Below, piece after piece: positions 7,350-34,939 of a DNA stretch of 37,381 nt (the first letter of the stretch is position 1; each line of letters opens with the position of its first letter). Made by a program: the position numbers and the translations under genes. The notes below the pieces were generated by a model. That model saw only the letters and a program-made list of their open reading frames with translations. It ran no database searches and was not told the DNA's origin. The DNA comes from an uncultured Bacteroidota bacterium (GTDB lineage: Bacteria; Bacteroidota; Bacteroidia; Flavobacteriales; Flavobacteriaceae), in assembly GCA_902510475.1 (NCBI GenBank), contig CABXCC010000013.1, positions 1-37,381 on the forward strand, in the 5' to 3' direction.

Positions 7350-7360
7350 AATAAAAAATT

Positions 7361-8821: not shown

Positions 8822-8837
8822 ACTAACAAACACAAAT

Positions 8838-10397: not shown

Positions 10398-10408
10398 TAA
10401 ATAATATT

Positions 10409-11308: not shown

Positions 11309-11330
11309 TAATATTTTTATATGAACATAT

Positions 11331-11367
11331 AAGAGAGAAGTTCTGTAAAACTTCTCTCTTATTTTTT
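11331..11367 (+). terminator. intrinsic terminator inside the glucan locus
   Basis: AAGAGAGAAGTT at 11331-11342 pairs perfectly over 12 bp with AACTTCTCTCTT at 11349-11360 around a 6-base loop, followed by ATTTTTT. It should end or reduce transcription of susC-susD and the two binding proteins before the enzyme genes. Confidence 0.82.
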
Positions 11368-11374
11368 ATATTTG
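11367..11374 (+). promoter_or_regulatory. -7 promoter box TATATTTG before the GH16 gene
   Basis: TATATTTG matches the TAnnTTTG consensus exactly and abuts the T-run of the terminator. The predicted start of transcription (about 11381) is 13 bases before the GH16 ATG at 11394. A degenerate -33 (TTCTG at 11341-11345) lies about 21 bases upstream, inside the hairpin. It would give the GH16-GH3-lacI genes their own transcript. Confidence 0.5.
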
Positions 11375-11393
11375 TGACTTGCTTAACGAAATC

Positions 11394-12491: not shown

Positions 12492-12496
12492 AAATT

Positions 12497-14764
12497 ATGA
12501 GAAAAATTATTTATTCCCTTATTACTTTATTATTTGTTGTTTCATGTGAGAATTCTAATTCTCATGATTCTGAAAAAGAAAAATTTATTAATGATTTAAT
12601 TTCCAAGATGACCCTGGAAGAAAAGGCAGGTCAAATGAACCAATACAACGGTTTTTGGGATGCAACTGGTCCAATGCCTGAAGGTGACTATCAGAAAAAG
12701 AGATATAATGAACTAATGAATGGACAAGTTGGTTCTATGTTAAATGTTATAGGAGTGGATGAAATATATGCACTACAAAAGATAGCAGTAGAAGAAACTA
12801 GATTAGGCATTCCTTTAATTTTTGGTCATGATGTAATCCATGGATATAAAACTATTTTTCCAATTCCTTTAGCAGAGTCGTCAAGTTGGGATTTAGATCT
12901 AATGGAAAAATCTGCAAGAGTTGCTGCAACCGAAGCAAGTGCTGATGGTCTTAATTGGACTTTTGCTCCAATGGTTGATATTTCTAGAGACGCAAGATGG
13001 GGTAGAGTAATGGAAGGAGCTGGTGAGGATCCTTATTTAGGGAGTCTAGTTGCAAAAGCAAGAGTTAAAGGTTTTCAGGGAACTGATCTGAGCGAAATCA
13101 ACTCAATTGTTGCTTGTGCAAAACATTTTGCTGGTTATGGTTTTTCTGAAGCTGGAAGAGATTATAACACTACAGACTTTAATCATTTTACACTTCATAA
13201 TACAATTATGCCTCCTTTCAAAGCAGCAGTTGACGCAGGTGTGAGGACTTTTATGAATTCGTTTAACACGTTGGATGAAATACCTGCAACTGGACACATA
13301 CACATTCAGAGAGATATTCTAAAAGGTGATTGGGATTTTGACGGATTTGTTGTTTCAGATTGGGGCTCAATTGACCAAATGATTCCACATGGATTTGCAA
13401 GGGACGGAAATCATGCAGCTGAATTGGCTGTTATTGCGGGTTCCGATATGGATATGGAATCAAGCTTGTATGTAAGTAAATTAGTTGGTTTGGTTAACTC
13501 TGGAAAAGTAGATATTAATTTGATAGATGATGCAGTTAAAAGAATTCTTAGGGTCAAGTATGAATTAGGTTTATTTGATGATCCTTATAAATATTGTAAT
13601 AATGAAAGATCAATTCAAGAATTAGGCTCTGACCAAAATATGCAGGTAGCTCTTGAAGCAGCAAAAAAATCTATTGTTTTATTAAAAAATAATAATCAAT
13701 TATTACCGTTAGAAAAAGAAGGCAAAAAAATAGCTTTAATCGGCCCGTTGGCAGATGACAAAAACAGCCCACTTGGAAACTGGAGATCTCAGGCTGTTTA
13801 CAATTCAGCAACTTCTGTTCTTGAGGGAATGAACAAATATAAAGGTAATAGAATTGTATTTGAAAAAGGAGTAGAGCTTTACTATGGTAAAACAAACTTT
13901 CATAACAGAGTTAAATTAAATTATAATGATAGGTCTGATTTTGGGAAAGCAAAATTGGCAGCAGCCACCTCAGACGTAGTGGTTATGGTTATGGGGGAAG
14001 AAGGCCATCAGTCTGGTGAAGGACGAAGTAGAACAAATATTGGATTACCAGGTTTACAATTTGAGCTCTTAAAAGAAATTTATAAAATTAATCAAAATAT
14101 TATTTTGGTTGTAATGAGCGGAAGACCATTAGACCTATCATGGGCTGACAAAAATATTCCGTCAATAGTACAAGCTTGGCAACTTGGTTCAAAATCGGGT
14201 GATGCAATTGCCCAAGTATTATACGGAGATTATAATCCATCAGGAAAATTAACAATGTCATTTCCAAGAAATGTTGGGCAGGTCCCAATATATTATAATT
14301 TTAAAAATACAGGAAGACCTAGTACCTCCATAGAACAGGTTACTAATTCGGGCTATGCTGATGTAGTTAATAGCCCATTATATTCGTTTGGACATGGGTT
14401 AAGTTATACTAATTTTAAATATTCTAATTTAACAATTGACTCTGGTGAGTTAGACTATAATTCCAAAATTAATATTTCTGTTAAAATTGAAAATACTGGA
14501 TTTTTCACTGGAAAAGAAGTTGCACAATTATATATCCGAGATATTGTTGGCAGTATAGCTAGACCAATGAAAGAATTAAAAGGATTTGAGATGATTGAAT
14601 TAGCACCAGGAGAATCTAAAGTTGTTAGTTTTGAAATTGATAGTTCTTTATTAGAATTCTACACATATGAAAATAAATGGGAGGCTGAAGACGGAAAATT
14701 TCATGCTTTTATTGGAACAAATTCTGATGTAAGCGACTATAAAGAATTTCATTTAGTTAAGTAG
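12497..14764 (+). CDS. bglX: GH3 beta-glucosidase lipoprotein
   Basis: This 755-residue protein has a lipoprotein signal (MRKIIYSLITLLFVVSC, C17). It has the full three-domain BglX layout: a TIM barrel (about 25-365) with LGIPLIFGHDVIHG, KHFAGYG at 209-215 and the nucleophile D288 in GFVVSDWGS; an alpha/beta sandwich (about 380-605) with SIVLLKN, IALIGPLAD and GEEGHQSGEG, which supplies the acid/base; and a C-terminal fibronectin-III-like domain (about 650-750, NTGFFTGKEVAQLYI...RPMKELKGFE). It should release glucose from the beta-1,3- and beta-1,6-linked oligosaccharides made by the GH16 enzyme 5 bases upstream, in the periplasm or at a membrane surface. Confidence 0.94.
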   Translation: MRKIIYSLITLLFVVSCENSNSHDSEKEKFINDLISKMTLEEKAGQMNQYNGFWDATGPMPEGDYQKKRYNELMNGQVGSMLNVIGVDEIYALQKIAVEETRLGIPLIFGHDVIHGYKTIFPIPLAESSSWDLDLMEKSARVAATEASADGLNWTFAPMVDISRDARWGRVMEGAGEDPYLGSLVAKARVKGFQGTDLSEINSIVACAKHFAGYGFSEAGRDYNTTDFNHFTLHNTIMPPFKAAVDAGVRTFMNSFNTLDEIPATGHIHIQRDILKGDWDFDGFVVSDWGSIDQMIPHGFARDGNHAAELAVIAGSDMDMESSLYVSKLVGLVNSGKVDINLIDDAVKRILRVKYELGLFDDPYKYCNNERSIQELGSDQNMQVALEAAKKSIVLLKNNNQLLPLEKEGKKIALIGPLADDKNSPLGNWRSQAVYNSATSVLEGMNKYKGNRIVFEKGVELYYGKTNFHNRVKLNYNDRSDFGKAKLAAATSDVVVMVMGEEGHQSGEGRSRTNIGLPGLQFELLKEIYKINQNIILVVMSGRPLDLSWADKNIPSIVQAWQLGSKSGDAIAQVLYGDYNPSGKLTMSFPRNVGQVPIYYNFKNTGRPSTSIEQVTNSGYADVVNSPLYSFGHGLSYTNFKYSNLTIDSGELDYNSKINISVKIENTGFFTGKEVAQLYIRDIVGSIARPMKELKGFEMIELAPGESKVVSFEIDSSLLEFYTYENKWEAEDGKFHAFIGTNSDVSDYKEFHLVK

Positions 14765-18553: not shown

Positions 18554-19459
18554 ATGGAATGGAAAGGAGTCATGCCTGCAATTACCACCAAATTCAATTC
18601 AAGTAATAAGTTAGATCTTGATTTATTTAATAAGAATTTAAGTTTTCAAATTGATTCAGGTGTAAATGCAATAGTCTTAGCAGGTTCACTTGGGGAAGCC
18701 AGTACACTAAACCAGGAAGAAAAGAATATTTTAACCAAAAGCACTGTACAATATGTACAAGATAAAGTGCCAGTTGTGATAAATATTGCTGAACAGGGTA
18801 CTTTAGATGCAATAAAATGCGCTGAAGATGCTGAAATGCTTGGGGCTAAGGGTTTAATGGTATTACCTCCAATGAGGTACAAGTCTGGAAGAAATGAAAC
18901 AATTGATTACTTTAGGTCGATAGCAAACTCAACAAGTCTTCCAATAATGATTTACAACAACCCTGTTGATTATGGAATTGAAGTAACACTAGACATGTTT
19001 GATGAATTGTTAAAATGTGAAAATATTAAAGCTGTCAAAGAATCAACAAGGGATATTTCAAATGTGACAAGATTGAAAAATAGTTTTGGATCAAGATTAA
19101 AAATTATGACGGGAGTTGATACAATTGCTCTTGAAAGTTTATTAATGGGAGCTGACGGATGGATCGCGGGTCTTGTATGCGCCTTTCCAAGGGAAACAGT
19201 TGCAATTTACAAACTACAAGAAAAAGGAAAAATTAAAGAAGCAATAGAAATATATAGATGGTTTCTTCCCTTGTTAGAGTTAGATATAAACCCCAAGCTT
19301 GTTCAAAATATTAAATTAGCAGAAACCATTTTGAATATTGGATCTGAACACGTAAGATTACCTAGAAAACCTCTTTCAGGTAATGAGAGAGAAGAGGTGT
19401 TGAAAATTATTAATACAGGAATTAAAAATAGACCAGATTTAACAAAATATAATTTTTAA
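18554..19459 (+). CDS. DapA-family lyase, probable 1-pyrroline-4-hydroxy-2-carboxylate deaminase
   Basis: This 301-residue TIM-barrel enzyme of the dihydrodipicolinate synthase family has the Schiff-base lysine K162 in KAVKEST and the active-site tyrosine Y134 in YNNP. The substrate-loop sequence GSLGEAST replaces the GTTGES of true DapA, which argues against lysine synthesis. With a 4-hydroxyproline epimerase, an FAD D-amino-acid dehydrogenase and an aldehyde dehydrogenase in the same operon, it most likely deaminates 1-pyrroline-4-hydroxy-2-carboxylate to 2-oxoglutarate semialdehyde, step three of trans-4-hydroxy-L-proline degradation. It is the first gene of the operon. An inverted repeat TTATCT/AGATAA lies just upstream (18528-18544). 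Confidence 0.85.
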   Translation: MEWKGVMPAITTKFNSSNKLDLDLFNKNLSFQIDSGVNAIVLAGSLGEASTLNQEEKNILTKSTVQYVQDKVPVVINIAEQGTLDAIKCAEDAEMLGAKGLMVLPPMRYKSGRNETIDYFRSIANSTSLPIMIYNNPVDYGIEVTLDMFDELLKCENIKAVKESTRDISNVTRLKNSFGSRLKIMTGVDTIALESLLMGADGWIAGLVCAFPRETVAIYKLQEKGKIKEAIEIYRWFLPLLELDINPKLVQNIKLAETILNIGSEHVRLPRKPLSGNEREEVLKIINTGIKNRPDLTKYNF

Positions 19460-19462
19460 AAA

Positions 19463-21034
19463 ATGATTTCAGGTAAAAACCAAATTGGAGAAGATTTGTC
19501 TTCGGATTCTAATGAAACTTTTCAAACATTTGATCCTAAATTAAATATTGAAAATGACACAATATTTTTTGAAGCAAGTGACACTGAAATTCGAAAAGCA
19601 ACAAAACTTGCATCAGATGCATTTAAAATTTTTAAACAAGTTTCAGCAAAGAAAAGATCAGAATTTTTAATACAAATTTCTGAAGAGTTAAAATTAATTT
19701 CTTCTGAAATTATAAACATATATTGTTCTGAAACAGGATTGCCTGAAGCAAGATGTTTAGGAGAATTAGGAAGAACTATAAATCAACTTATAAGTTTTGC
19801 AGAACTACTCAAAGAAGGAAAGTATCAAGAAGTTTCTATTGACAGTCCAATTCCAAACAGAAAACCTTTGCCAAAACCAGATCTTAGAAAAATGTTAATG
19901 CCAATTGGCCCTGTTGTAGTTTTTGGTGCTAGTAACTTTCCTTTAGCCTATTCAACTGCTGGAGGTGATACAGCATCTGCTTTAGCTGCAGGATGCCCAG
20001 TTATTTTGAAATCTCATCCGATGCATGCTGGAACTGGAGAGTTGGTTTCATCAGCAATTATAAGAGCGGCAAAAAAAACAAATATGCCTAACGGAGTTTT
20101 TTCTAATTTAAACAGTAAAGGAATTGAGGTTGGTATTAAATTGGTAAATAGTCCTCACGTAAAGGCCGTTGGATTTACCGGAAGTTTAAAGGGCGGTAGA
20201 GCGATTTATGATTTGGCATCAAAGAGAAGACACCCAATTCCTGTATTCGCTGAGATGGGAAGTGTTAATCCGGTTTTAATTTTTCCCAAAAAACTTGAAA
20301 AAGAATATGCTGAACTGGCTATACAATATGCCAAATCAATTACTGTTGGATCTGGACAGTTTTGTACAAATCCAGGAATTATAATTTCTTTTGAATCCGA
20401 TGTTTTTGACCTTTTTATAAAAAAATTGATTGAGGAAATTGAACAAATATCTCCTTCATGTATGTTACATCCTAATATTTATAATGCATACAATTCAGGA
20501 TTAGAAAAAATTAAGCAAAACAGTAATGTATCTGTACTTACTCGTGAAATAAATATAATAGATAAAAATTATCCGCAACATGTTATTTCACATGTTAGCG
20601 CTGGAAATTTTATCGAAGATAAAAGTTTACAACATGAGGTTTTTGGACCTTGTTCATTAATTGTAACATGTCAAGATTATAAGGAGATGTATGCCGCTAT
20701 AGAATCTTTAGAAGGACAGTTGACAGGTACAGTACTAGCCGAAAATAATGATACTATGTTAACTCAAGAAATTATTGATGCTTTAGAACTAAAAGTTGGT
20801 AGAATTATTTTCAATGGTGTACCAACAGGAGTTGAAGTTTGTGAGTCTATGACCCATGGAGGTCCTTACCCGGCTTCAACCGATAGTAGATTTAGCGCGG
20901 TTGGGATTAATTCGATAAAGAGATGGTTGAGACCTGTAAGTTATCAAGATTTCCCTGAAAGTTTATTACCAGATGAATTAAAAAATGGAAATCCCTTAAA
21001 TATAAAACGTAATATAAATGGTGTTGTAGACTAA
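19463..21034 (+). CDS. 2-oxoglutarate semialdehyde dehydrogenase (aldehyde dehydrogenase family)
   Basis: This 523-residue aldehyde dehydrogenase lies 3 bases after the deaminase gene. Catalytic residues are visible: N158 (GASNFP), E264 (FAEMGS), nucleophile C301 (GSGQFCTNPG), and the FTGSLKGG cofactor loop. The sequence belongs to the FASNFP/GSGQFCT subgroup used for 2,5-dioxovalerate (2-oxoglutarate semialdehyde) oxidation. It would convert the product of the upstream deaminase to 2-oxoglutarate with NAD(P)+, feeding the TCA cycle. This is the last step of hydroxyproline breakdown; the same enzyme also serves pentose or glucarate pathways elsewhere, but no such genes are nearby. Confidence 0.9.
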   Translation: MISGKNQIGEDLSSDSNETFQTFDPKLNIENDTIFFEASDTEIRKATKLASDAFKIFKQVSAKKRSEFLIQISEELKLISSEIINIYCSETGLPEARCLGELGRTINQLISFAELLKEGKYQEVSIDSPIPNRKPLPKPDLRKMLMPIGPVVVFGASNFPLAYSTAGGDTASALAAGCPVILKSHPMHAGTGELVSSAIIRAAKKTNMPNGVFSNLNSKGIEVGIKLVNSPHVKAVGFTGSLKGGRAIYDLASKRRHPIPVFAEMGSVNPVLIFPKKLEKEYAELAIQYAKSITVGSGQFCTNPGIIISFESDVFDLFIKKLIEEIEQISPSCMLHPNIYNAYNSGLEKIKQNSNVSVLTREINIIDKNYPQHVISHVSAGNFIEDKSLQHEVFGPCSLIVTCQDYKEMYAAIESLEGQLTGTVLAENNDTMLTQEIIDALELKVGRIIFNGVPTGVEVCESMTHGGPYPASTDSRFSAVGINSIKRWLRPVSYQDFPESLLPDELKNGNPLNIKRNINGVVD

Positions 21035-21068
21035 AATGAGATCCTCGATTTTAAAAATTAATAAATAC

Positions 21069-22778
21069 ATGAAATACAATTATCTTTTTCTAATAATTTT
21101 TATTTTCTACTCATGTAATACAGATCAGCATAAATTAGAAGGTATTATTGAAGAATATCAAAACCATAAAGGATACGATCATGATGAGTACCCACTTGGA
21201 AATTTTTCTGAAGATTACTTTAAGAATGAAAAAGAATTCGCAGAGAATCTTTTATCAAAAATGTCTAAGATAGATGCAAATAAGTTAGTTGAAAACGATA
21301 ATATTTCTTACGAATTATTATCCTTTGAGCTACTTGATATAATAGCTTATTATGATTTTGAAAGATTTCTAAATCCTCTATTATCTGACTCAGGTTTTCA
21401 CACTAGCTTGGTCTATCATGTTAGGCCTGTGTATAATTATGAGCAGATTAAAAATTATTTAAATAAACTTAATTCAATTCCTCAATATGTTGATCAGTAT
21501 TTACCCCTTATGAGAAAAGGAATTGAAAAAGGAGTTTCACAACCATTGATAATTTTTAAAGGTTATGAATCTACTTACAACGATCATATTACCGAAGATT
21601 ATAAATCAAATTATTTTTATTCTCCGTTCAGTAACTTACCAAAAGAATTATCTCAAACTCAAAAAGATTCTATTTTAATCGAGGCCAAAAAAGCCATTGA
21701 AAAAAATGTGGTTCCACAATTTATTAGGATTAAAGACTTTTTTGAAAATGAGTATTATCCAAATACAAGAAATAGTATTGGGGTTTCAGAAACCCCTAAT
21801 GGATCAGAATTTTATCAAAATAGAATTGATTATTACACAACAAGTAAGACATATACTGCTGATAAAATATATGAAATTGGATTAACTGAGGTGGCCAGAA
21901 TTAAAAAAGAGATGATTGAAATCATCAAAGAATTAAATTTTAAGGGTTCTTTTGAGGAATTTTTCAAATTTTTAAGAACAGATGACCAATTTTATGCGAA
22001 AACTCCAAAAGAGCTACTTATTTATGCAAGGGATATTTCAAAAAGAGCAGATGCACAGCTTCCAAGATTTTTTAAGACCCTCCCAAGAAAACCATACGGA
22101 GTTGCACCAGTCCCTGATGCTATTGCTCCAAAATACACTGGAGGAAGATATGTTGGTACTTCAAAAAATAGCACTGAACCTGGTTATTATTGGGTAAACA
22201 CATATGATTTAAAAAGCAGAACTCTTTACACAATTCCTGCTTTAACAGTACACGAGGCTGTTCCCGGACACCATCTTCAAAATGCATTAAATAATGAATT
22301 AGGAGATAGTATACCGCAATTTAGAAGAAATTTATATTTATCAGCTTATGGCGAGGGTTGGGGTTTATACACAGAATTTTTAGCTGATGAAATGGGGATT
22401 TATACAACTCCTTATGAAAAATTTGGCAAGTTTACTTACGAGATGTGGAGAGCTTGTAGATTAGTAGTAGATACTGGTATTCATGCAAAAGGCTGGTCAC
22501 GCGATCAAGCAGTTAATTATATGTCAAGTAACACTGCATTGTCACTTCACGAAGTTAATACCGAAATAGACAGGTATATTTCTTGGCCTGGGCAAGCATT
22601 GTCATATAAAATAGGTGAATTAAAGATTAGAGAATTACGAAATAAGGCGGAAAATAAATTAGATCAAAAATTTGATATTAGAGATTTTCATGAGATTATC
22701 TTAGAATATGGAACAGTAACTCTGTCAATATTAGAAAACAGAATTAATAATTATATAGTTAATAAAATCAATGAGTAA
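21069..22778 (+). CDS. DUF885 family secreted metallopeptidase-like lipoprotein
   Basis: The start at 21069 (MKYNYLFL) gives a normal lipoprotein signal ending FYSC. An ATG at 21036, 1 base after the aldehyde dehydrogenase stop, would add 11 residues and is the coupled alternative. The 569-residue body is DUF885: a long helical N-terminal part, GVAPVPDAIAP, and the zinc-type motif HEAVPGHH at about 395-402 followed by LSAYGEGWGLYTEFLADE, which supplies a downstream Glu as in M2/M3/M32-like peptidases. It lies inside the hydroxyproline operon (8-base overlap with the epimerase gene), so a role in releasing hydroxyproline-containing peptides in the periplasm is attractive. That role is inference; the peptide specificity is unknown. 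Confidence 0.8.
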   Translation: MKYNYLFLIIFIFYSCNTDQHKLEGIIEEYQNHKGYDHDEYPLGNFSEDYFKNEKEFAENLLSKMSKIDANKLVENDNISYELLSFELLDIIAYYDFERFLNPLLSDSGFHTSLVYHVRPVYNYEQIKNYLNKLNSIPQYVDQYLPLMRKGIEKGVSQPLIIFKGYESTYNDHITEDYKSNYFYSPFSNLPKELSQTQKDSILIEAKKAIEKNVVPQFIRIKDFFENEYYPNTRNSIGVSETPNGSEFYQNRIDYYTTSKTYTADKIYEIGLTEVARIKKEMIEIIKELNFKGSFEEFFKFLRTDDQFYAKTPKELLIYARDISKRADAQLPRFFKTLPRKPYGVAPVPDAIAPKYTGGRYVGTSKNSTEPGYYWVNTYDLKSRTLYTIPALTVHEAVPGHHLQNALNNELGDSIPQFRRNLYLSAYGEGWGLYTEFLADEMGIYTTPYEKFGKFTYEMWRACRLVVDTGIHAKGWSRDQAVNYMSSNTALSLHEVNTEIDRYISWPGQALSYKIGELKIRELRNKAENKLDQKFDIRDFHEIILEYGTVTLSILENRINNYIVNKINE

Positions 22779-23778
22779 ATATATTTTCGAATGTATTGAT
22801 GCACACACTTGTGGTAATCCGGTAAGATTGATTTTAACAGAAAATCCAAAACTCAACGGAAAAACAATGAGTGAAAAAAGATTGGATTTTTTAAAAAATC
22901 ATGATTGGATCAGAAAATCTTTGATGTTTGAACCAAGAGGTCATGATATGATGAGTGGGGGAATGATATATCCTCCAGAAAACTCAGAAAATGATTTTTC
23001 AATTTTATTTTTAGAAACTTCTGGATGTTTACCCATGTGTGGGCATGGAACAATTGGTATCGTTACTATAGCACTTGAAGAAAATTTAATAAAACCAAAA
23101 GTTGAAGGGGTTCTAAAAATTGAAGTTCCTGCTGGAACAATAGAGGTTAATTATAAAATAAAAAATGAAAAAGTAGAGTGGGTAGAAATCATAAATGTAG
23201 ATAGTTTTCTTGCCGATTCAAATTTAAGGATCCATTCAGATTATTTGGGTGGAATTAAGTTTGATGTTTCTTATGGGGGTAATTTTTATGCGATTATTGA
23301 ACCTCAAAAAAATTATTTTGGATTAAATAATTATCGAGCTGAAGAACTTATTTCTTTTTCCCGTGAAATTAGAGATAAGATTAATAAAAAATATGCAAAT
23401 AGATTTATTCACCCTATTGATAAATCTATAAGTAACGTGTCTCATGTTTTATGGACAGGTCAGGTACTTGATGATGAATCTTCGTCAAGAAACGCGGTAT
23501 TTTATGGAGATAAAGCAATTGACAGATCTCCGTGTGGTACAGGAAGTTCTGCTAGAATGGCGCAATTATTTTCACAAAACAAACTAAAAGTTGGAGAGGT
23601 TTTTATTCATGAAAGTTATATTGGATCAAAATTTGTTTGTAGAATTCAAAAATCTTCAAAAATTCATAATATTGACGGGATTTCGCCAGTTATAAGAGGT
23701 TGGGCTAAAATTCACGGCCATAATAAAATAATTGTCGACAGTTTAGATCCTTTTTATCAGGGATTCCAAGTAATATAA
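22771..23778 (+). CDS. 4-hydroxyproline 2-epimerase
   Basis: This 335-residue protein belongs to the proline racemase superfamily. Both catalytic cysteines are present: C90 in LPMCGHGTIG and C255 in DRSPCGTGSSARMA, with H92 and D251. Two cysteines indicate an epimerase or racemase; trans-3-hydroxyproline dehydratases have Thr at the second position. The N-terminal IDAHTCGNPVRL is typical. In this operon the substrate should be trans-4-hydroxy-L-proline, converted to cis-4-hydroxy-D-proline, the first step of the pathway. The ATG overlaps the end of the DUF885 gene by 8 bases; the next gene follows after 2 bases. Confidence 0.92.
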   Translation: MSKYIFECIDAHTCGNPVRLILTENPKLNGKTMSEKRLDFLKNHDWIRKSLMFEPRGHDMMSGGMIYPPENSENDFSILFLETSGCLPMCGHGTIGIVTIALEENLIKPKVEGVLKIEVPAGTIEVNYKIKNEKVEWVEIINVDSFLADSNLRIHSDYLGGIKFDVSYGGNFYAIIEPQKNYFGLNNYRAEELISFSREIRDKINKKYANRFIHPIDKSISNVSHVLWTGQVLDDESSSRNAVFYGDKAIDRSPCGTGSSARMAQLFSQNKLKVGEVFIHESYIGSKFVCRIQKSSKIHNIDGISPVIRGWAKIHGHNKIIVDSLDPFYQGFQVI

Positions 23779-23780
23779 AT

Positions 23781-25028
23781 ATGTCTAAAAAGGTATTAAT
23801 TGTCGGAGGCGGGATTATTGGAATATGCTCAGCATATTTTTTAAAAAAAGATGGTTTTGATGTAACTATCGTTGACAAATCAAGTATGAACACTGGTGCG
23901 TCATATATAAATGCAGGATATTTATCTCCTGGCCACATAATTCCTTTGGCATCACCTGGTGTAATAAGTCAAGGTCTTAAGTGGATGTTTGATTCTTCAA
24001 GCCCTTTTTACATTCAGCCTAGATTCAATACCCCGTTTATTAAATGGCTAATTGCTTTTAATAAGTCTTGTAGTGAAAAAAATGTTGAAAACTCAATCAG
24101 ACCTATTATTGATTTGTCGGTTTTTAGTCAGGAATTATTAAATCAAATCAAGACTGAAAATCAAATGTCATTTCACTATGAAAAAAAGGGATTGATGATG
24201 TTGTGTAAATCTGAAAAGTCATTACGCAAAGAAGAGGAAATTGTAAAAAAAGCGGTTGAAAGTGGATTAAGCGCTAAAATGTTAAGTGTTGATGATATAA
24301 AATCAATTGAGCCTAACATAAATATTGACACAATTGGTGCTGCTTATTTTGGATCTGACCATCATACAACGCCTGGAGAGCTGATTTCTCAATTAAAAAA
24401 ATTCATTCTTGATAACGGAGTAAATTGTTTAAAAAATACCGAAATTGAAAATTTTGAAATAGACAGAGATAAAATAAAATCGGTTAAAATTTCTGGAAAG
24501 AGTGTTAGATTTGACGAATATGTTTTATCGGCAGGAACTTGGACATCTAAAATATGTAATAAGTTAGGAATTGACCTGCTTTTACAGGCTGGAAAAGGGT
24601 ATAGTATAAATCATCATAAACAAACAGGAATAACATGTCCAGCAATTTTAGTAGAAGCTAAATGTGCGATAACCCCAATGAATGGATTTTGCAGATTCTC
24701 TGGAACAATGGAGATTTCTTCTATTAATAACAAATTAAGAATGAATAGAGTAAATGCTATTGCTGATTCAGTTGAATCATTCTATCCATCAATTAAAATC
24801 CCTCAATCTGACAGAAAAAGTGCTGTTTTTGGATTCAGACCCATATCGGCAGATGGCTTGCCATATATTGGTAGAACAAAAAAATTAAAAAATGTGTTAA
24901 TTGCTACTGGTCACGGTATGATGGGGTGGAGTATGAGCACAGGGACAGGAAAGATTATTTCCGAGTTAATTTCCGAAAAAAATACTTCTATTAATATTGA
25001 TCGATTTAATCCTAATAGAAAATTTTAA
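23781..25028 (+). CDS. FAD-dependent D-amino-acid dehydrogenase, probable cis-4-hydroxy-D-proline dehydrogenase
   Basis: This 415-residue DadA-like flavoprotein has the FAD-binding motif VGGGIIGICSAYFL at 8-21, an acidic E/D at the end of the second strand (TIVDKS), the NAGYLSPGH segment of D-amino-acid dehydrogenases, and the C-terminal FAD contact ADGLPYIGR...TGHGMMGWSMS. It would oxidise cis-4-hydroxy-D-proline to 1-pyrroline-4-hydroxy-2-carboxylate and pass electrons to the respiratory chain, the second pathway step. It is the last gene of the operon; its end overlaps by 4 bases the end of the convergent kinase/aminotransferase fusion. Other D-amino acids are possible substrates, but the neighbourhood supports hydroxyproline. 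Confidence 0.88.
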   Translation: MSKKVLIVGGGIIGICSAYFLKKDGFDVTIVDKSSMNTGASYINAGYLSPGHIIPLASPGVISQGLKWMFDSSSPFYIQPRFNTPFIKWLIAFNKSCSEKNVENSIRPIIDLSVFSQELLNQIKTENQMSFHYEKKGLMMLCKSEKSLRKEEEIVKKAVESGLSAKMLSVDDIKSIEPNINIDTIGAAYFGSDHHTTPGELISQLKKFILDNGVNCLKNTEIENFEIDRDKIKSVKISGKSVRFDEYVLSAGTWTSKICNKLGIDLLLQAGKGYSINHHKQTGITCPAILVEAKCAITPMNGFCRFSGTMEISSINNKLRMNRVNAIADSVESFYPSIKIPQSDRKSAVFGFRPISADGLPYIGRTKKLKNVLIATGHGMMGWSMSTGTGKIISELISEKNTSINIDRFNPNRKF

Positions 25029-28018
25029 TCACACTTTAAAAAATCCTCTTTCAAAACTAAATCAAGAAAAAACAATAAATTATCTGCATCTTTTTTGTTA
25101 AAAATCATCGGTGGTTTAATTTTTATAACATTATGATCAATTCCGTCATTACTCATTAAAAATCCAAGATCCTTCATTCTACTTTTTAAATATATTGCTT
25201 TGTCTTCTAAAGGATTTAATTTTTCATCAACTAATTCAAAACCAAGAAATAACCCTTTACCTCTAACATCTCCGATTATTGGATGTTTTGATGCTAAGCT
25301 CAATAAGCCCTTTTTTAAATAATTGCCGATTATCAAAGCATTTTTTTGTAAATCTTTTGATTCTATCTCATTTATTACTTCAGATGCGATTTTACAAGAC
25401 ACTGGATTTCCACCAAAAGAGCTAAAGAATTCCATTCCGTTATTAAATTTTTCTGAAACTTCATCACTACAGACAACAGCTCCGATAGGGTGCCCGTTAC
25501 CCATTGGTTTACCAAGTGTAACTATATCAGGAATTACATCATATAATTCAAAACCCCAATACTTTTCTCCAACTCGTCCAAAACCAGTTTGCACTTCATC
25601 ACATATTAGAAGAATATTATTTTTAGTAAATAATTTCGCACACTTTTTTAGGAATGTTTTTGGAAGCTCAATCTGACCTCCACAGCTTAAAATTGGTTCT
25701 ATTATCATTGAACTAATTTTATTTTTTTTCATTTTTGACTTTTCAACGATATTTTGAACATAAGAAAAATATTTTTTAGAAGTATTTTTTCCACGATGTT
25801 TTCCACGGAATATGTCTGGAATTGGTATTTCATAAATGTTTTTTAATTTGCCTCTCCCTCCCTTACTCATATATTTATAGTTGCTCAGATTTATCGCGTA
25901 GTTTGTATTTCCATGATATCCGCCCTTTGAAACAATATGATTATTACTATTCGTATATATTTCACTCATTCGGATTGCTAGCTCGTTGGCTTCACTTCCA
26001 GAATTGACAAAATATATTTTTGATAATTTTTTTGGAAATTTTCGTAATATCTTTTCGCTAAGATCTAAAATCTCTTTGTGTAAATATCTAGTGTTAGTGT
26101 TTAAGATCCCCAATTGTTTTTTTGCAGATTTTACAACATTTATATTTTGATGACCAACATGTGCAATATTATTCACGGTGTCTAGATACTTACGCCCGTA
26201 ATTGTCAAATAGAAATTGATTAAACCCGCGAACTATGTGTAAAGGATTTTGGTAGCTTAACATCAAGTTTGCACCCAAATATTTTTTCCTTAGCTTAATC
26301 AATTTATCATTTTCTTGGGCTTTATTTCTAGGCAGCTTAATATTTAAAATTATTTCTGGATTAGGACAAATACTAGACCAAACATCTTTTTCATTAAAAA
26401 AACATACACCAGGAAAATCATTTTTGAAATTTAACAATGTTAGCATAATTTGAAAATGTAAATGTGGTGTCCATCCTCCATTTTCTTTTTTATTTCCTAT
26501 TTCACCGATTTTTTGGCCTTTCTTAATTTTTTGGCCTTTCTTAATTTTTGATTTTTTTTGATCAGATAAATGTCCATAAAGGGAATAATATTTAATGTTA
26601 TTTATTAAATGTTCAATAATTACTAAGCCTCCATAACCTTTTTTGGTTTTATCATTGGTTATGATTTTTACAAAACCATCCATAATGGAATAAACCGGGG
26701 TTTTTTCATTTATCCAAAAGTCAATTCCTAGATGAGTTGTTCTATTTTCTATCCCACAATCTGTAATTTTTTGATAATCTAACGAATCATATACAGGTCT
26801 TACCTCTAAATATCCACCACATAATAATTTGTTTTCAGAATTAGATTTTAACTTTTGTTCAAATTTGTTATTATCTATTATCATTTCATTATCAAGCCAT
26901 TCACTAGAAACACTCATATCAATCGCTTTTGGATCTTTTTTGTTTAAAGTTTTAAAAAGTATATCCAATGAAGAATTATTTTCTTTGATCATTGCACTAA
27001 ATTTCTTTTCATTCTTGTGAGGGGAATATCCACATGATTTTCTAAAAAAACATATAGCTAACTCTTTATTCATCATAGACCAATTTTTGAATAGTAAATT
27101 CATGTCATCTTGGCTAATAACTAAATATTTATTTTCCCTGTTATTTTTTTTATTAAGACTTGATTTAATTAATGATACTGTGATTCTCATTAAGATTAAA
27201 TCATATAAGAAATCAATTTCCTCCTCTTTTATTTTTAAACTATTGTTGAATCCCTCTAAAACATCACAGGCTGATATTAAAGGATTCTTACTCCCGATAA
27301 TTGCATAAGTACAAAGTATGGCAACTTCGTTAATTATTTGAGTATATGTGCAATCCCCAAAATCTATTATCCCATTAATTCTTGGCGCTTTTAAATTTTT
27401 AGAAACGATGATATTATTATCATTGATATCGTTGTGGATAATAGACTTTCTTAGTTGCCTGTATTTTTCTTCTTCTTGTTTAAAGTTAGATATGAGTTTT
27501 TTAACAATATTTCTTTTAGAAATGCCAATTTCGTTTGTGTATTTTTCAGTCCATAAAAAATTTTGCAAATCCCAATCAAATTTATTTCTTAAATATTTTT
27601 TTTTAACTTTTTTTAATTCATTTAAAATTTTAGCTGAAATTTCCCCTAGTTCAAACCTAAGCGATTTATTAATGGGGTTTACTTTTGACCATAATCTCCC
27701 TTCAATCCAACTGTTCATTCTAAAGAATCTCAGATTATTATCTTTATCTTGAAAGGATCCAATCACATTACCATTCAATGTAGGTGTGTTGCTAGAAGTT
27801 TTTTTATTTTTTTTAAGTAAATAAAGAATATCAATCTGAAATTTTACAAACTCCTCGTCGGTATTTTTGGGATAAATTTTAAAAAAAAATATATTGTTTT
27901 TTGAAACTATTTTAAAGTTGTCATCAATTTCACCATTCACTTGAATTGCTTTTGATCTGATTTTATAATTAGAAAAGACAAGTTTTTCTACAAAGCCTAA
28001 TTCAAATTTGTTTTTCAT
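25025..28018 (-). CDS. three-domain fusion: APH-type kinase, M23 metallopeptidase-like domain, class-III aminotransferase (candidate hydroxylysine kinase / phospho-lyase)
   Basis: This 997-residue protein has no signal peptide. Residues about 1-300 are an aminoglycoside-phosphotransferase-type kinase with catalytic HNDINDNN (D197) and metal-binding IIDFGD (D219). Residues about 400-550 are an M23 (LytM) domain with all zinc ligands (H429, D433, H519-L-H521) and YGHL at 481-484. Residues about 575-997 are a PLP-dependent class-III aminotransferase: SGSEA at 683-687, GGYHGNT, DEVQTGFGR with D807, and the PLP lysine K837 in TLGKPMGNGHP. That last domain resembles the AGXT2L group, which are phospho-lyases rather than transaminases. 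Kinase plus phospho-lyase is the hydroxylysine (or ethanolamine) breakdown chemistry. It ends tail to tail on the hydroxyproline operon, which favours hydroxylysine. Why an M23 domain is present is unclear. Confidence 0.85.
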   Translation of the reverse strand: MKNKFELGFVEKLVFSNYKIRSKAIQVNGEIDDNFKIVSKNNIFFFKIYPKNTDEEFVKFQIDILYLLKKNKKTSSNTPTLNGNVIGSFQDKDNNLRFFRMNSWIEGRLWSKVNPINKSLRFELGEISAKILNELKKVKKKYLRNKFDWDLQNFLWTEKYTNEIGISKRNIVKKLISNFKQEEEKYRQLRKSIIHNDINDNNIIVSKNLKAPRINGIIDFGDCTYTQIINEVAILCTYAIIGSKNPLISACDVLEGFNNSLKIKEEEIDFLYDLILMRITVSLIKSSLNKKNNRENKYLVISQDDMNLLFKNWSMMNKELAICFFRKSCGYSPHKNEKKFSAMIKENNSSLDILFKTLNKKDPKAIDMSVSSEWLDNEMIIDNNKFEQKLKSNSENKLLCGGYLEVRPVYDSLDYQKITDCGIENRTTHLGIDFWINEKTPVYSIMDGFVKIITNDKTKKGYGGLVIIEHLINNIKYYSLYGHLSDQKKSKIKKGQKIKKGQKIGEIGNKKENGGWTPHLHFQIMLTLLNFKNDFPGVCFFNEKDVWSSICPNPEIILNIKLPRNKAQENDKLIKLRKKYLGANLMLSYQNPLHIVRGFNQFLFDNYGRKYLDTVNNIAHVGHQNINVVKSAKKQLGILNTNTRYLHKEILDLSEKILRKFPKKLSKIYFVNSGSEANELAIRMSEIYTNSNNHIVSKGGYHGNTNYAINLSNYKYMSKGGRGKLKNIYEIPIPDIFRGKHRGKNTSKKYFSYVQNIVEKSKMKKNKISSMIIEPILSCGGQIELPKTFLKKCAKLFTKNNILLICDEVQTGFGRVGEKYWGFELYDVIPDIVTLGKPMGNGHPIGAVVCSDEVSEKFNNGMEFFSSFGGNPVSCKIASEVINEIESKDLQKNALIIGNYLKKGLLSLASKHPIIGDVRGKGLFLGFELVDEKLNPLEDKAIYLKSRMKDLGFLMSNDGIDHNVIKIKPPMIFNKKDADNLLFFLDLVLKEDFLKCD
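26509..26544. repeat. 18-bp perfect tandem repeat inside the fusion gene
   Basis: The 18-base unit TTTTTTGGCCTTTCTTAA is repeated exactly twice (26509-26526, 26527-26544). On the coding strand it duplicates the six residues KKGQKI within the M23 domain, giving KIKKGQKIKKGQKIG at about 491-505. Confidence 0.9.
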
Positions 28019-31280: not shown

Positions 31281-33248
31281 ATGAAAAGAAACTATATAAT
31301 CTTACTTCTATTAGTTTTTACCTGCAATTTTCTTTTTTCACAGTCTCCAGAAATTTTATTAAATGGTACAGTGAGCGCTGAAGAAAGCCAGATAAAAAAT
31401 GTTGCTGATCCAACAGACCCTGGTGATGCCATCAACAAAGGATATCTCTCTGAAATGTTTGAATCTTTGCAGTCACAAATTGACGGTTTAGAGTCTCAGG
31501 CTGAGGATTTACAAACACAAATAGATTCCATAAATGGAGTCGTTAAAGTTGTTATTTCTGCTATTGCTACAACCGGCACTCATGGTTCACGTTTTTATTT
31601 TGATAGCGCTAGTTCTTTCAATGGAGAGGATACATTTGACTTCTCCTATGGCAATAATGGTTGGCAAGGATGGGGTGGAAATTCTCTCGTTGATCAGGGG
31701 TTAAATCCTAGATATATTGTTTCTCAAATTTTAAGTAGAGTCCCAGCTGATGGAAGTGTTTTTGCTGATTACGAGTTCAATAGTTATTTTTCCATTGGAG
31801 ATTCTTTTGGCTTTAAAGATTTACCAAATGTTTTAACTTCTGATGATTACATTATCACAGATTTTAATACCTCGACAAATTTTGATGTAAGAATAAACGA
31901 TGCTGATTTAGAAGGTGAAGAGCTTGTTGTTTCATTATCAGAAGTCCCTGATTTAGGAACTTTGACATTAAATGATAATGGTACACTCACGTATACACCT
32001 GCTGCAGATTTTTCAGGTGAAGTTCAATTTACTTATGATGTTACAGACGGAGTGAATATAGCAAATGCATCCGTAAAAATTTTGGTTAAAGAAGAAATAC
32101 TACCTCAAGAAAATATTGTTATTTCTGGTATAGCTGTTACTGGACCTGGAACTGGGTCTAGATTTGTTTATGACAGTGTAACTTCCGAAATAGGTTATGA
32201 TACTTTTGATTTTGGTTATGGTAACAGTGGTTGGCAAGGCGGTGGAGGTAATACACTTATTGAACAAGGTTGGAATCCTAACTACTTAATTTCTCAGATT
32301 TTAAGTATGGTTCCAGCTGATGGCAGTGTAACTTCAGTTACTGAATTTAATTCATATTTTTCTGTTGGTGATATATTTAGTTTTACAGGTTTATCAAATG
32401 TTTTAGCAGCAAATGATTACTTTAAAACTTTATTCCAAAGTTCAGTAACAATTGATGTTAGAAATAATGATGCTGATTTTGAAGGAGAGGAACTAATTGT
32501 TACTGTGATTGATGGCCCTAATTCTGGGACGCTAATATTGAATGAAAACAATACACTTTCATTTACACCAGCTGATGATTTCTCTGGTGAAGTACAATTT
32601 ACCTATCAGGTAACCGATGGTGAAAATACTGCAAATGCGGTAGCAACAATTTATGTTGAGCCTCAAATTGAACCTCAAGAAAATGTAACACTGTCTATAA
32701 TAGGATCAGCTGGTTCTAATGTTTCACGTTTCTGGTTTGACAGTCTTACTGCCTCAGGAGGTGAGGATACATTTGATTTTATATATGGATCTTCCGGTTG
32801 GCAAGGTGGTGGGGGTAATTCATTGACATTACAAGGTTTAAATCCAAATTATATTATATCTCAAATATTAAGTGTAGTTCCTGCTAATGGTAGTGTAATA
32901 TTATATAGTGAATTTAACACTTATTTTTCTGTAGGTGACTCTTTTAGTTTCTCCGGTTTATCAAATATTTTGACAAATGATGATTACGTTATAACAGATT
33001 TTAACACATCGATTGATGATTTTGATGTAAGGTCTAATGATGCTGATTTAGAGGGTGAACAGTTAATAGTCACATTATTGGAAGGCCCTGAGTCAGGTAC
33101 TTTGACATTGAATGATAATGGTACATTTTCATTTACACCTGCTACAGATTTTTCTGGTGAAGTTCAATTTACCTATGAAGTAACCGACGGTGAAAATGTA
33201 GCTGGCGCTACATCAACAATTAAAGTTAGAGACGAAAACTTTGATTAA
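31281..33248 (+). CDS. secreted surface protein with shared tail-fibre-like N-terminus and three tandem Ig-like repeats
   Basis: This 655-residue protein has a Sec signal peptide ending LFSQS. Residues 23-56 hold the module ILLNGTVSAE...QIKNVADPTDPGDAINKGYL, shared with the next two genes and reminiscent of phage tail-fibre proteins. A coiled coil follows (about 57-85, SQIDGLESQAEDLQTQID). Three repeats of about 189 residues (88-275, 277-465, 467-653) make up the rest. Each repeat has an unrecognised part (SRF..D...EDTFDF.YG..GWQG) and a cadherin/Ig-like part (DVR.NDADLEGE...GTLTLNDNGT...DFSGEVQFTY.VTDG). There is no lipobox and no T9SS tail. It is likely an exposed adhesin or fibre; the partner is unknown. 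Confidence 0.7.
   Translation: MKRNYIILLLLVFTCNFLFSQSPEILLNGTVSAEESQIKNVADPTDPGDAINKGYLSEMFESLQSQIDGLESQAEDLQTQIDSINGVVKVVISAIATTGTHGSRFYFDSASSFNGEDTFDFSYGNNGWQGWGGNSLVDQGLNPRYIVSQILSRVPADGSVFADYEFNSYFSIGDSFGFKDLPNVLTSDDYIITDFNTSTNFDVRINDADLEGEELVVSLSEVPDLGTLTLNDNGTLTYTPAADFSGEVQFTYDVTDGVNIANASVKILVKEEILPQENIVISGIAVTGPGTGSRFVYDSVTSEIGYDTFDFGYGNSGWQGGGGNTLIEQGWNPNYLISQILSMVPADGSVTSVTEFNSYFSVGDIFSFTGLSNVLAANDYFKTLFQSSVTIDVRNNDADFEGEELIVTVIDGPNSGTLILNENNTLSFTPADDFSGEVQFTYQVTDGENTANAVATIYVEPQIEPQENVTLSIIGSAGSNVSRFWFDSLTASGGEDTFDFIYGSSGWQGGGGNSLTLQGLNPNYIISQILSVVPANGSVILYSEFNTYFSVGDSFSFSGLSNILTNDDYVITDFNTSIDDFDVRSNDADLEGEQLIVTLLEGPESGTLTLNDNGTFSFTPATDFSGEVQFTYEVTDGENVAGATSTIKVRDENFD
31542..33239 (+). 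repeat. three tandem ~565-bp in-gene repeats
   Basis: Repeat units at about 31542-32105, 32109-32675 and 32679-33239 encode three homologous copies of the same two-part module. Protein identity is high in the GWQG, SQILS.VPA.GSV and DFSGEVQFTY segments, while the DNA copies have drifted at third positions. Confidence 0.85.
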
Positions 33249-33261
33249 ATTTAAAATAGAT

Positions 33262-34929
33262 ATGAAATATACTTTTACACTAATTATCGGATTGTTGTCT
33301 GCGTTAAGTTTTTCACAATCTGCTGATATTCTCTTGAATGGTACTGTTAGCGCAGAGAATAATCAAATTAAAAATGTTGCTAATCCAACTGAGTCAGGTG
33401 ATGCGATAAATAAATATTATTTTTTACAGGTTCTGGATACTACAATTGTTTCTGCTAATCTTCAAAATGTTTTGAATGCAGGTCCAAACGCAAATTTAAC
33501 TCTTGATTCTGATGATAATGATGGGCTTGATTTAATTTTTTCAGTTGATGGAAACAATTATATGAGATATGAGGGCTTTACCAGTAAAATCAACGTGGGA
33601 AATGGAGAGGCTTATGCAATTTATGCTGATGCCTCAGCTCCCAATCTAGGTAGAAATCATGCGATTCAGGGTACAGCTAGTGGCGGCGAGGAATTAAATG
33701 TAGGTTTAATTGGATTATCCGAAGGAGATGGTAATGAGACAACAAATATGGGTGTTTGGGGTCAAGCAAGATATTCTCCTGGATCAAATATTGGTGTTAC
33801 TGGTTATGCTCATTTTGAATCTGGTGCCAATACGGGTTTATACGGGTCAGCCATGAATTCCTCAAATTTAAATATTGGAGTATCTGCTGAAACTAGTGCA
33901 AATACATCCCACACTGGGAATAATTATGCATTAAGGGCGAGCGCAATGTCTGAATCTGAAAATGGTATTAATTATGGAGTTTATTCTGTTGCTGGTGGTG
34001 GTAGTGAAAGTTATGCTGGATTTTTTATTGGAGATGTGAAAGTTTCTGAAGGTAAAATCAATAGTGATGTTACATTAGTTAACCCTCCTGTTGAGGATAT
34101 GGATGCAGTGAATAAATCTTTTCTATTGGGAATATTAGAAGCTTACGAATCTCAGATTGATGATTTACAAGCTCAGATTAGTAATTTACAAACTCAATTA
34201 AATAACCTTAATGCAGCTGAAATCCCTACTGAAGGATTAGTTGCATATTATCCTTTTAACGGAAATGCAAATGATGAAAGTAGTTTTGATAATCACGGAA
34301 CTGTCAATGGCGCTACTCTGACCAGCGATAGATTTGGAAATGTCGATAGAGCATACAGCTTTGATGGGGATGGAGATTCTATTTTATCTGACTATATAAT
34401 AGAGCCTCAATCAACGACGACTTTTTCATTTTGGGCAAAGACAACAGAAGAAACAAGAAGAATGACAGTTTTGAATCAAGATTGTAATGGATCTGGGCTC
34501 TCAGATTCTGAAAATTGTCATGATACATTTGCTTTAGTTTTAAATAAATTTTTAAACTCGGCTGTTGTATGTGAATACGGACACATGGATACTTCGCCTC
34601 AATCATTTGGATATGTTGGGGGAAGTCATTATGGAACGGTAAATCATGAGGTTGCTAATAGCGGATGGCAACACTATGCTTTAGTTATTGGTGAAAACAA
34701 CAATTATTCATACTCTAATTTCAAGTTTTATGTGAATGGTGTTTTATCGGAAACTGGGTGTGATCACAATTGGGGTGGTTGGGAATATGAATATGCAAAT
34801 ATACCTCTTGCAATTGGAAAAGGAAATAATTACACATTAGAGGGTGATTATTTGGGAGAAATTGATGATGTAGCTATTTGGAATAGAGCATTATCAGATG
34901 AAGAAATTGCTAACTTATTCGATCTTTAA
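33262..34929 (+). CDS. secreted surface protein with shared tail-fibre-like N-terminus and LamG-like C-terminal domain
   Basis: The start at 33262 (MKYTFTLI) gives a signal peptide ending SFSQS; a TTG at 33241 lies inside the previous gene. The 555-residue protein repeats the SADILLNGTVSAENNQIKNV module. A Gly/Asn-rich section (about 95-265) with a short-period pattern (GVWGQA, IGVTGYA, NTGLYGSA, IGVSAE) follows, as in beta-helical tail-spike regions. A second DAVNKSFL module with a coiled coil (about 282-320, SQIDDLQAQISNLQTQL) comes next. The C-terminal domain (about 330-555) begins GLVAYYPFNGNANDES and contains YSFDGDGDS and DDVAIWNRALSDEEI, a concanavalin/LamG-like fold that often binds glycans. 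It lies 13 bases after the preceding gene. Confidence 0.75.
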   Translation: MKYTFTLIIGLLSALSFSQSADILLNGTVSAENNQIKNVANPTESGDAINKYYFLQVLDTTIVSANLQNVLNAGPNANLTLDSDDNDGLDLIFSVDGNNYMRYEGFTSKINVGNGEAYAIYADASAPNLGRNHAIQGTASGGEELNVGLIGLSEGDGNETTNMGVWGQARYSPGSNIGVTGYAHFESGANTGLYGSAMNSSNLNIGVSAETSANTSHTGNNYALRASAMSESENGINYGVYSVAGGGSESYAGFFIGDVKVSEGKINSDVTLVNPPVEDMDAVNKSFLLGILEAYESQIDDLQAQISNLQTQLNNLNAAEIPTEGLVAYYPFNGNANDESSFDNHGTVNGATLTSDRFGNVDRAYSFDGDGDSILSDYIIEPQSTTTFSFWAKTTEETRRMTVLNQDCNGSGLSDSENCHDTFALVLNKFLNSAVVCEYGHMDTSPQSFGYVGGSHYGTVNHEVANSGWQHYALVIGENNNYSYSNFKFYVNGVLSETGCDHNWGGWEYEYANIPLAIGKGNNYTLEGDYLGEIDDVAIWNRALSDEEIANLFDL

Positions 34930-34939
34930 AAATCAAACT

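What the first reader, a model, noticed from the sequence alone, without database searches (positions are those of the whole stretch)
18554..28018. Candidate collagen-residue recycling island: hydroxyproline and hydroxylysine catabolism side by side
Seen: a five-gene operon with the four enzyme types of the trans-4-hydroxy-L-proline to 2-oxoglutarate route (two-Cys epimerase, DadA-like FAD dehydrogenase, DapA-like deaminase, FASNFP/GSGQFCT aldehyde dehydrogenase) and a secreted DUF885 peptidase-like lipoprotein. Directly convergent is a kinase plus AGXT2L-like PLP enzyme fusion. Known: kinase plus AGXT2L-type phospho-lyase is how 5-hydroxylysine is degraded in animals. Inference: because hydroxyproline and hydroxylysine occur together mainly in collagen, the island may salvage both from collagen peptides. 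No dedicated transporter or regulator is in the window, so uptake must be encoded elsewhere.
Basis: partly seen in the sequence, partly recalled or inferred. Interest (0 to 1): 0.75.

Follow-up and report, generated by a model that had tools for sequence, protein, structure and literature searches.

The report
Bacterial gene cluster salvaging collagen-type residues
A marine bacterium carries, side by side, genes that look able to break down hydroxyproline and hydroxylysine, two amino acids typical of collagen, and related bacteria often keep these genes together with sugar-removing enzymes that would fit collagen's hydroxylysine-linked sugars.

Summary
The five-gene hydroxyproline (Hyp) operon is real; its epimerase passes its curated model.

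The pairing is not unique. Of 93 three-domain-class loci in this bacterial family (window included), 36, from 28 genera, have a Hyp-epimerase-family gene within 20 kb, each with a convergent one.

Relatives give an independent substrate clue. Of 88 intact three-domain loci, 35 have glucosidase- or galactosidase-type neighbours, 21 in the order glucosidase-fusion-galactosidase; ten carry trans-3-hydroxyproline genes; six carry alpha-aminoadipate-semialdehyde (AASA) dehydrogenase or 2-oxoadipate decarboxylase types. Two-domain controls: 1 of 27. Four Sinorhizobium/Ensifer loci repeat the theme. This fits Glc-Gal-hydroxylysine of collagen: sugars removed, hydroxylysine phosphorylated, ammonia and phosphate eliminated to AASA.

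Nothing was assayed. The nearest solved structure is an ethanolamine-phosphate lyase. No such glucosidase was found in 21 incomplete genomes of this genus, so here it probably scavenges free or peptide-borne residues. M23's role is open.

The parts
18554..19459 (+). [quoted passage not shown]
   Evidence: PF00701 E 1.7e-59; seen in 19 of 88 three-domain loci within the stretch fetched
19463..21034 (+). HypH-like: aldehyde dehydrogenase, 2,5-dioxovalerate / alpha-ketoglutarate semialdehyde (inferred)
   Evidence: PF00171 E 1.6e-47; best NCBIfam NF052305 115.9 bits, far below cut-off 750
21036..22778 (+). DUF885 lipoprotein-like protein, peptidase-like (inferred)
   Evidence: PF05960 E 3.7e-158; seen in 25 of 88 three-domain loci
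22771..23778 (+). HypE: 4-hydroxyproline 2-epimerase, two-Cys
   Evidence: NF010578 519.9 bits > cut-off 376; CGH and SPCGTG motifs
23781..25028 (+). HypO-like: FAD D-hydroxyproline dehydrogenase (inferred)
   Evidence: PF01266 E 2.2e-51; NF001933 271.9 bits, below cut-off 383
25025..28018 (-). three-domain fusion: putative 5-hydroxylysine kinase - M23 metallopeptidase - 5-phosphohydroxylysine phospho-lyase
   Evidence: (NF004799 full length, 933.9 bits, cut-off 1128)
27305..27934 (-). APH kinase domain, residues 29-238; catalytic-type H195, D197, N202, D219
   Evidence: PF01636 E 2.2e-15; D197, N202, D219 in 89 of 89 aligned, H195 in 87
26444..26737 (-). Peptidase_M23 domain, residues 428-525, metal-site residues kept
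   Evidence: PF01551 E 9e-22; H429, D433, H483, H519, H521 each 88 of 89; matches LytM/lysostaphin/TagE-type chains by sequence
25070..26245 (-). class III PLP (AGXT2L-type phospho-lyase) domain, residues 592-983, PLP lysine K837
   Evidence: PF00202 E 7.8e-79; nearest solved 6tor E 8.2e-109; K837 89 of 89

Best explanation
The locus is a salvage island for hydroxylated amino acids of collagen type. The + strand operon epimerises trans-4-hydroxy-L-proline (HypE), oxidises the D-form (HypO), deaminates the pyrroline (HypD) and oxidises the semialdehyde (HypH) to 2-oxoglutarate; DUF885 probably trims peptides. The - strand fusion phosphorylates 5-hydroxylysine on its hydroxyl (APH domain). Its PLP domain then eliminates phosphate and ammonia, giving alpha-aminoadipate semialdehyde (AASA), which a P6C/AASA dehydrogenase encoded elsewhere in this genome oxidises. 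In relatives the same fusion often sits in an operon with an alpha-glucosidase and a beta-galactosidase that would strip Glc-Gal from glycosylated hydroxylysine. Shown: the domains, motifs, synteny and neighbour counts. Inferred: every substrate and reaction, and collagen as the natural source. The M23 domain keeps its metal-site residues; its role is unknown.
For: Families and motifs. Synteny with the Hyp operon: 36 of 93 three-domain-class loci (4 of the 93 are fragments; the window is one of the 36) within 20 kb, 28 genera, each with a convergent epimerase. Context of 88 intact three-domain loci, labelled by best BLAST seed: Hyp genes 36, glycosidases 35, T3LHyp dehydratase plus reductase 10, ALDH7/HGLS 7 (6 without L104), at least one 66 (65 without L104); control class 1 of 27. 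PF22422 glucosidase: 48 genes in 80 genomes, 28 within 10 kb of the fusion, about 0.3 expected; all 28 among the 31 of 660-715 aa. AASA/P6C dehydrogenase above cut-off near the fusion in L074, L139, L161, L093 and in the window's own genome at C4:54029-55453. HGLS in L074, L093, L085, L096. Galactokinase and GalT in the L062 cluster. Repeat in four Sinorhizobium/Ensifer loci with GH42 and in two Marinimicrobia loci with GH2, a T3LHypD type and an aminopeptidase P type.
Against: Nearest solved relative is human ethanolamine-phosphate phospho-lyase, and no hydroxylysine lyase is among the 60 of 204 chains listed, so sequence alone cannot separate the two. The kinase part has no significant solved relative (best E 0.82). 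22 of 88 three-domain loci (23 with L104) had none of the telling neighbours within the stretch fetched. Two-domain relatives lack the context although 49 of 55 genomes in that class have HypE. In the genus PF22422 and HGLS were not found (0 of 21 each; genomes incomplete, the window's 65%). 8 of 12 alphaproteobacterial fusion loci examined lack the glycosidases. HypH scores far below every named NCBIfam equivalog listed. Neighbour counts are not corrected for shared descent.
Confidence: 0.78

Rival explanations
1. The fusion is an ethanolamine kinase plus ethanolamine-phosphate phospho-lyase for phospholipid head groups, and its place beside the Hyp operon has no metabolic meaning.
For: Nearest solved chains are 6tor (human ETNPPL, E 8.2e-109) and 5g4i (bacterial phospholyase); related separate-gene kinase/lyase pairs sit near an APC permease and an aldehyde dehydrogenase in Shinella and Agrobacterium.
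Against: A two-domain protein without the context (L071) and the S. meliloti fusion also hit 6tor best, so this is not discriminating. Frequent neighbours of the three-domain class are Hyp, T3LHyp, glycosidase and AASA-pathway types.
Confidence: 0.08
2. The substrates are right but the source is not collagen: free hydroxylysine or hydroxyproline, or algal material such as diatom wall peptides with hydroxylysine derivatives (recalled) and hydroxyproline-rich glycoproteins.
For: The genus has small genomes in which no PF22422 glucosidase was found (0 of 21) and no M9 collagenase (0 of 21, no control rang). The neighbouring cluster 4221-14764 looks built for glucan.
Against: In relatives Hyp, T3LHyp and Glc-Gal-removing enzyme types meet at one locus, a combination best explained by collagen.
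Confidence: 0.2
3. The adjacency is chance or mere genomic neighbourhood inheritance.
For: Within the genus the whole neighbourhood (ruvC, hemW, mevalonate genes) is conserved in L006-L009, so linkage there is one event.
Against: Hyp linkage is seen in 28 genera with changing intervening genes and spacing (about 1.3 to 20 kb); 28 of 48 PF22422 genes lie within 10 kb of the fusion against 0.3 expected.
Confidence: 0.03

Closest known systems
Animal hydroxylysine catabolism: hydroxylysine kinase (HYKK/AGPHD1) plus 5-phosphohydroxylysine phospho-lyase (PHYKPL/AGXT2L2), Veiga-da-Cunha 2012 (paper not held; title seen only as a reference in PMC8154272; content recalled)
   Same: same two enzyme folds (recalled), proposed same two reactions
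   Different: bacterial, fused in one chain with an M23 domain, linked to Hyp genes and in relatives to glycosidases
Bacterial trans-4-hydroxy-L-proline pathway (LhpA-F; passages of PMC5144071)
   Same: four enzyme types in one operon (types recalled and matched)
   Different: DUF885 gene in the operon; converges on the fusion; no transporter seen in the window
Colwellia collagen utilisation cluster with M9 collagenase and Hyp genes (passages of PMC7883544, 12 of 18 places shown)
   Same: collagen-residue island with Hyp catabolism and proline peptidases
   Different: has an M9 collagenase; the word hydroxylysine does not occur in that main text (0 hits); no kinase-lyase or Glc-Gal glycosidase in the passages seen
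NCBIfam NF004799 (PRK06148, 'hypothetical protein')
   Same: full-length match 3-991 of the protein; L139, of the same class, has the same domain order
   Different: 933.9 bits, below its cut-off 1128; S. meliloti L054 scores 1460.6
YgjK, GH63 alpha-glucosidase of E. coli
   Same: nearest solved relative of the glucosidase neighbour in L074 (1.2e-74)
   Different: its natural substrate is described only as assumed to be another alpha-glucoside (PMC9061262, passage); the animal PGGHG that removes Glc from Glc-Gal-Hyl is GH65 (PMC11012932, passages)

Membership tests
4-hydroxyproline catabolic operon (epimerase route) | HypE over curated cut-off with two catalytic Cys | tested here: met
   519.9 > 376; CGH / SPCGTG
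4-hydroxyproline catabolic operon (epimerase route) | DAO-family dehydrogenase, DapA-family deaminase and ALDH in the same operon | tested here: met
   PF01266, PF00701, PF00171, contiguous + strand
4-hydroxyproline catabolic operon (epimerase route) | ALDH passes a named semialdehyde dehydrogenase equivalog | tested here: not met
   best NF052305 115.9 against 750
Hydroxylysine kinase / phospho-lyase | APH kinase with catalytic residues intact | tested here: met
   PF01636; D197, N202, D219 89 of 89
Hydroxylysine kinase / phospho-lyase | class III PLP fold of AGXT2L type with PLP lysine | tested here: met
   6tor E 8.2e-109; K837 89 of 89
Hydroxylysine kinase / phospho-lyase | substrate is hydroxylysine, not ethanolamine | not testable with these tools
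   no assay; no hydroxylysine lyase among the solved chains listed; structure prediction switched off
Hydroxylysine kinase / phospho-lyase | downstream AASA dehydrogenase in the same genome | tested here: met
   NF050084 821.7 bits at G000:C4:54029-55453; 16 of 21 genus genomes match, 15 over the cut-off
NF004799 PRK06148 | score over curated cut-off 1128 | tested here: not met
   933.9 bits
Ethanolamine-phosphate phospho-lyase | closest solved sequence relative | tested here: inconclusive
   6tor is nearest for the three proteins tested, in or out of the collagen-type context
Collagen utilisation cluster | M9 collagenase | tested here: inconclusive
   0 of 21 genus genomes, but no control genome rang

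The most novel reading that the evidence does not exclude
Bacteria of several phyla share an undescribed pathway for glucosyl-galactosyl-hydroxylysine of collagen: PF22422/GH63-like alpha-glucosidase, GH2 or GH42 beta-galactosidase, then a single chain whose M23 domain frees hydroxylysine from short Gly-containing peptides, whose kinase phosphorylates it and whose PLP domain makes AASA.
Probability: 0.15. Interest if true: 0.85.

Novelty: new variant of a known kind. Interest (0 to 1): 0.62.

Why it matters
It would give a function to a large family named only hypothetical protein or class III aminotransferase; with its two-domain form it matches in 148 of 397 genomes sampled from this bacterial family. 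It would also give bacteria a route for the glycosylated hydroxylysine of collagen; hydroxylysine is not mentioned in the paper on a marine collagen cluster (PMC7883544). The prediction is directly testable with hydroxylysine and with glycosylated hydroxylysine from collagen hydrolysate, and it raises the question why a zinc-peptidase-type domain sits between a kinase and its partner lyase.

Tried and rejected
Rejected: reading the pair as a local curiosity; ethanolamine as first choice (context); L104's aldehyde dehydrogenase as AASA dehydrogenase (it is closest to a succinate-semialdehyde model); the 448-aa PLP gene in L139 as lysine 6-aminotransferase (hemL-type models match best). Genome-level co-occurrence alone is weak because the two-domain class shows it too. 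Promoter and terminator scans of the region gave numbers close to shuffles (56 against 52.6; 5 against 3.7). Eight paper searches (open-licence library only) listed nothing on a bacterial hydroxylysine or glycosyl-hydroxylysine operon by title or abstract start; one search listed 25 of 104 papers and 15 of 34, and subscription papers are mostly not held, so this is not proof of novelty. Rhizobial fusion loci with an Lrp gene and amino-acid binding protein (L053, L055, L178) show no glycosidase; their substrate is open.
Full report
What is there. The + strand array 18554-25028 encodes, in order, a DHDPS-family protein, an aldehyde dehydrogenase, a DUF885 protein, a proline-racemase-family protein and a DAO-family flavoprotein. 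The racemase-family protein passes the curated 4-hydroxyproline epimerase model NF010578 (519.9 bits, cut-off 376) and keeps both catalytic-type cysteines. The other three enzymes match their Pfam families well but reach no curated NCBIfam cut-off among those listed. The - strand gene 25025-28018 ends 4 bases inside the last operon gene. It encodes 997 aa with three Pfam domains: APH kinase, Peptidase_M23 and class III aminotransferase fold. The protein matches NF004799 over its full length but below the cut-off (933.9 against 1128).

Is it only local? No. In the genus, 13 of 20 other genomes have a long match (E below 1e-180) to the fusion model. In 397 genomes sampled from the family, 148 match it at E <= 1e-90 (two-domain forms and some fragments included) and 214 match the epimerase model at E <= 1e-40 (this also catches a paralogue); 130 have both (OR 14.2, P 1.2e-27, not corrected for shared descent). 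At genus level 88 of the 99 fusion genera have the epimerase in at least one genome, against 141 of 237 genera overall. Against a strong reading of this count, the two-domain class also has it in 49 of 55 genomes (5 of the 55 are fragments or kinase-M23 pieces). Position says more. The table was cut, so 50 genomes were searched again, and the window's own entry was taken. Of 93 loci classed as three-domain (4 are fragments), 36 have an epimerase-family gene within 20 kb, the window included; 29 have it on another contig, 12 have none and 16 have it further than 60 kb. In 34 of the 36 the nearest is convergent as in the window; in the other two (G198, G400) a same-strand paralogue lies nearer and a convergent epimerase lies 7 to 10 kb away. 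The 36 come from 28 genera. In the two-domain class it is 2 of 55, neither convergent.

What the neighbours say. I fetched 120 stretches of up to 20 kb, from 120 of the 148 fusion genomes, and labelled ORFs by best BLAST seed. Of 88 loci with an intact three-domain fusion, 36 have HypE or HypO, 35 a GH63-like, GH2 or GH42 gene, 10 a trans-3-hydroxyproline dehydratase type with its reductase, 7 an ALDH7 or HGLS type, and 66 at least one. One of the seven (L104) is closer to succinate-semialdehyde dehydrogenase, leaving 6 and 65. In 21 of 88 the order glucosidase-fusion-GH2 galactosidase is contiguous on one strand. Of 27 two-domain loci only L074 has any of these. L074 is telling: Lrp regulator, HGLS, AASA/P6C dehydrogenase (826.4 > 730), GH63-like, GH42, kinase-lyase, and a protein resembling D-2-hydroxyglutarate dehydrogenase (below its cut-off). 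L062 holds glucosidase, fusion, GH2 (970.1 bits, just below the cut-off 999 of NF052611), a symporter type, galactokinase, GalT, then the convergent HypO, a DPP IV-type gene, HypE and DUF885. AASA dehydrogenases over cut-off also lie near the fusion in L139, L161 and L093.

A whole-genome check of the glucosidase. PF22422 was searched in 80 of the 93 three-domain-class genomes: 40 have it, 48 genes in all. Twenty-eight lie within 10 kb of the fusion, where about 0.3 would be expected by size alone; all 28 belong to the 31 genes of 660-715 aa and come from 24 genera. The nearest solved relative of this glucosidase (L074) is YgjK. A paper says that YgjK has a high Km for nigerose and that its natural substrate was assumed to be another alpha-glucoside (PMC9061262, passage). 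From memory, not from a call, YgjK handles Glc-alpha-1,2-Gal well. Collagen hydroxylysine carries Gal and Glc-alpha-1,2-Gal (PMC11012932, passages; its abstract prints the Glc linkage as beta, the body as alpha).

Other phyla. In two Marinimicrobia loci kinase and lyase are separate neighbouring genes, followed by GH2 and, in the same run, a T3LHyp dehydratase type and a symporter, and preceded by an aminopeptidase P type. On alphaproteobacterial plasmids, 4 of 12 fusion loci examined (L054, L179, L182, L189) carry amino-acid and sugar ABC genes, a PF22422-type enzyme and a GH42 beta-galactosidase. The other eight showed no such glycosidase within 10 kb. I examined 15 of 106 plasmid records; three of these have separate genes in another context. 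A FastTree of the PLP domain puts 26 two-domain proteins in their own clade (support 1.0) and joins L074 to the S. meliloti protein (0.92), so the sugar-linked context appears on more than one branch; the node holding all three-domain proteins is weak (0.44).

The trans-3-hydroxyproline genes. The dehydratase type (L068) scores best against NF045511 but below cut-off (383.8 against 540); its partner reductase passes NF004793 (357.7 > 322). All ten have Cys at the first and Thr at the second catalytic position, unlike the Cys/Cys epimerases. The route dehydratase plus reductase to proline is described in PMC5144071 (passages).

Mechanism proposed. Hydroxylysine is phosphorylated by the APH domain and the PLP domain eliminates phosphate and ammonia to AASA. 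The window's own genome has an AASA/P6C dehydrogenase (821.7 bits), and 16 of 21 genus genomes match. HGLS was not found in the 21, so the later steps probably differ from those of L074. Kinase, PLP and M23 residues are nearly invariant in 89 aligned proteins. The conserved metal site suggests that M23 is a working hydrolase, perhaps on short peptides; its sequence relatives include LytM, lysostaphin and TagE-type enzymes. This part is a guess; two genomes carry kinase plus M23 without the lyase in that gene (L172; G301).

Limits. Nothing was assayed. The nearest solved relative of the lyase is human ethanolamine-phosphate phospho-lyase for the three proteins tested, in or out of the context. 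The kinase part has no significant solved relative. The window genome is 65% complete. In its genus no PF22422 gene was found (0 of 21), and the M9 search found none but no control rang. So collagen as the actual diet of this organism is inference from relatives.

Novelty. The pieces are known kinds. Their combination into a hydroxylysine, and in relatives glycosyl-hydroxylysine, pathway in bacteria did not appear in the searches made (listings only, open-licence library). The closest printed system I found, the Colwellia collagen cluster, does not mention hydroxylysine in its main text (PMC7883544).

Noticed in passing
window 4221-14764: SusC/SusD pair, PKD protein, GH16 and GH3 enzymes followed by a LacI-type regulator: looks like a beta-glucan (laminarin-type, recalled) utilisation cluster upstream.
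   Followed up: partly
window 31281-35875: Cadherin/Ig-repeat and laminin-G-type surface proteins between mevalonate-type genes and a ribose-phosphate pyrophosphokinase gene; the stretch is diverged and shorter in the close relative L006 but kept in L007.
   Followed up: no
L071, L073, L075, L116-L135 and others: A separate clade of two-domain kinase-lyase fusions (26 proteins, support 1.0) without any of the collagen-type neighbours in the stretches fetched; its substrate is open.
   Followed up: partly
L172:8852-10606: APH-M23 protein without the PLP domain (G301 alike), suggesting that M23 may work with the kinase rather than the lyase.
   Followed up: no
L186:6652-10290 and L187:6640-10299: Two class III PLP genes plus a phosphotransferase beside a Tm-1-like and a HAD gene, with an APC permease and aldehyde dehydrogenase nearby; perhaps a different kinase-lyase pathway.
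   Followed up: no
L053, L055, L178, L184, L185: Alphaproteobacterial three-domain fusions with a divergent Lrp-type gene; three (L053, L055, L178) also have an amino-acid binding protein downstream, L185 a weak match to another one; no glycosidases found.
   Followed up: partly
L056-L068 and others: DUF4407 membrane protein and a DUF4440-like protein are frequent same-strand neighbours of the fusion (25 and 34 of 88 loci); no role known to me.
   Followed up: no
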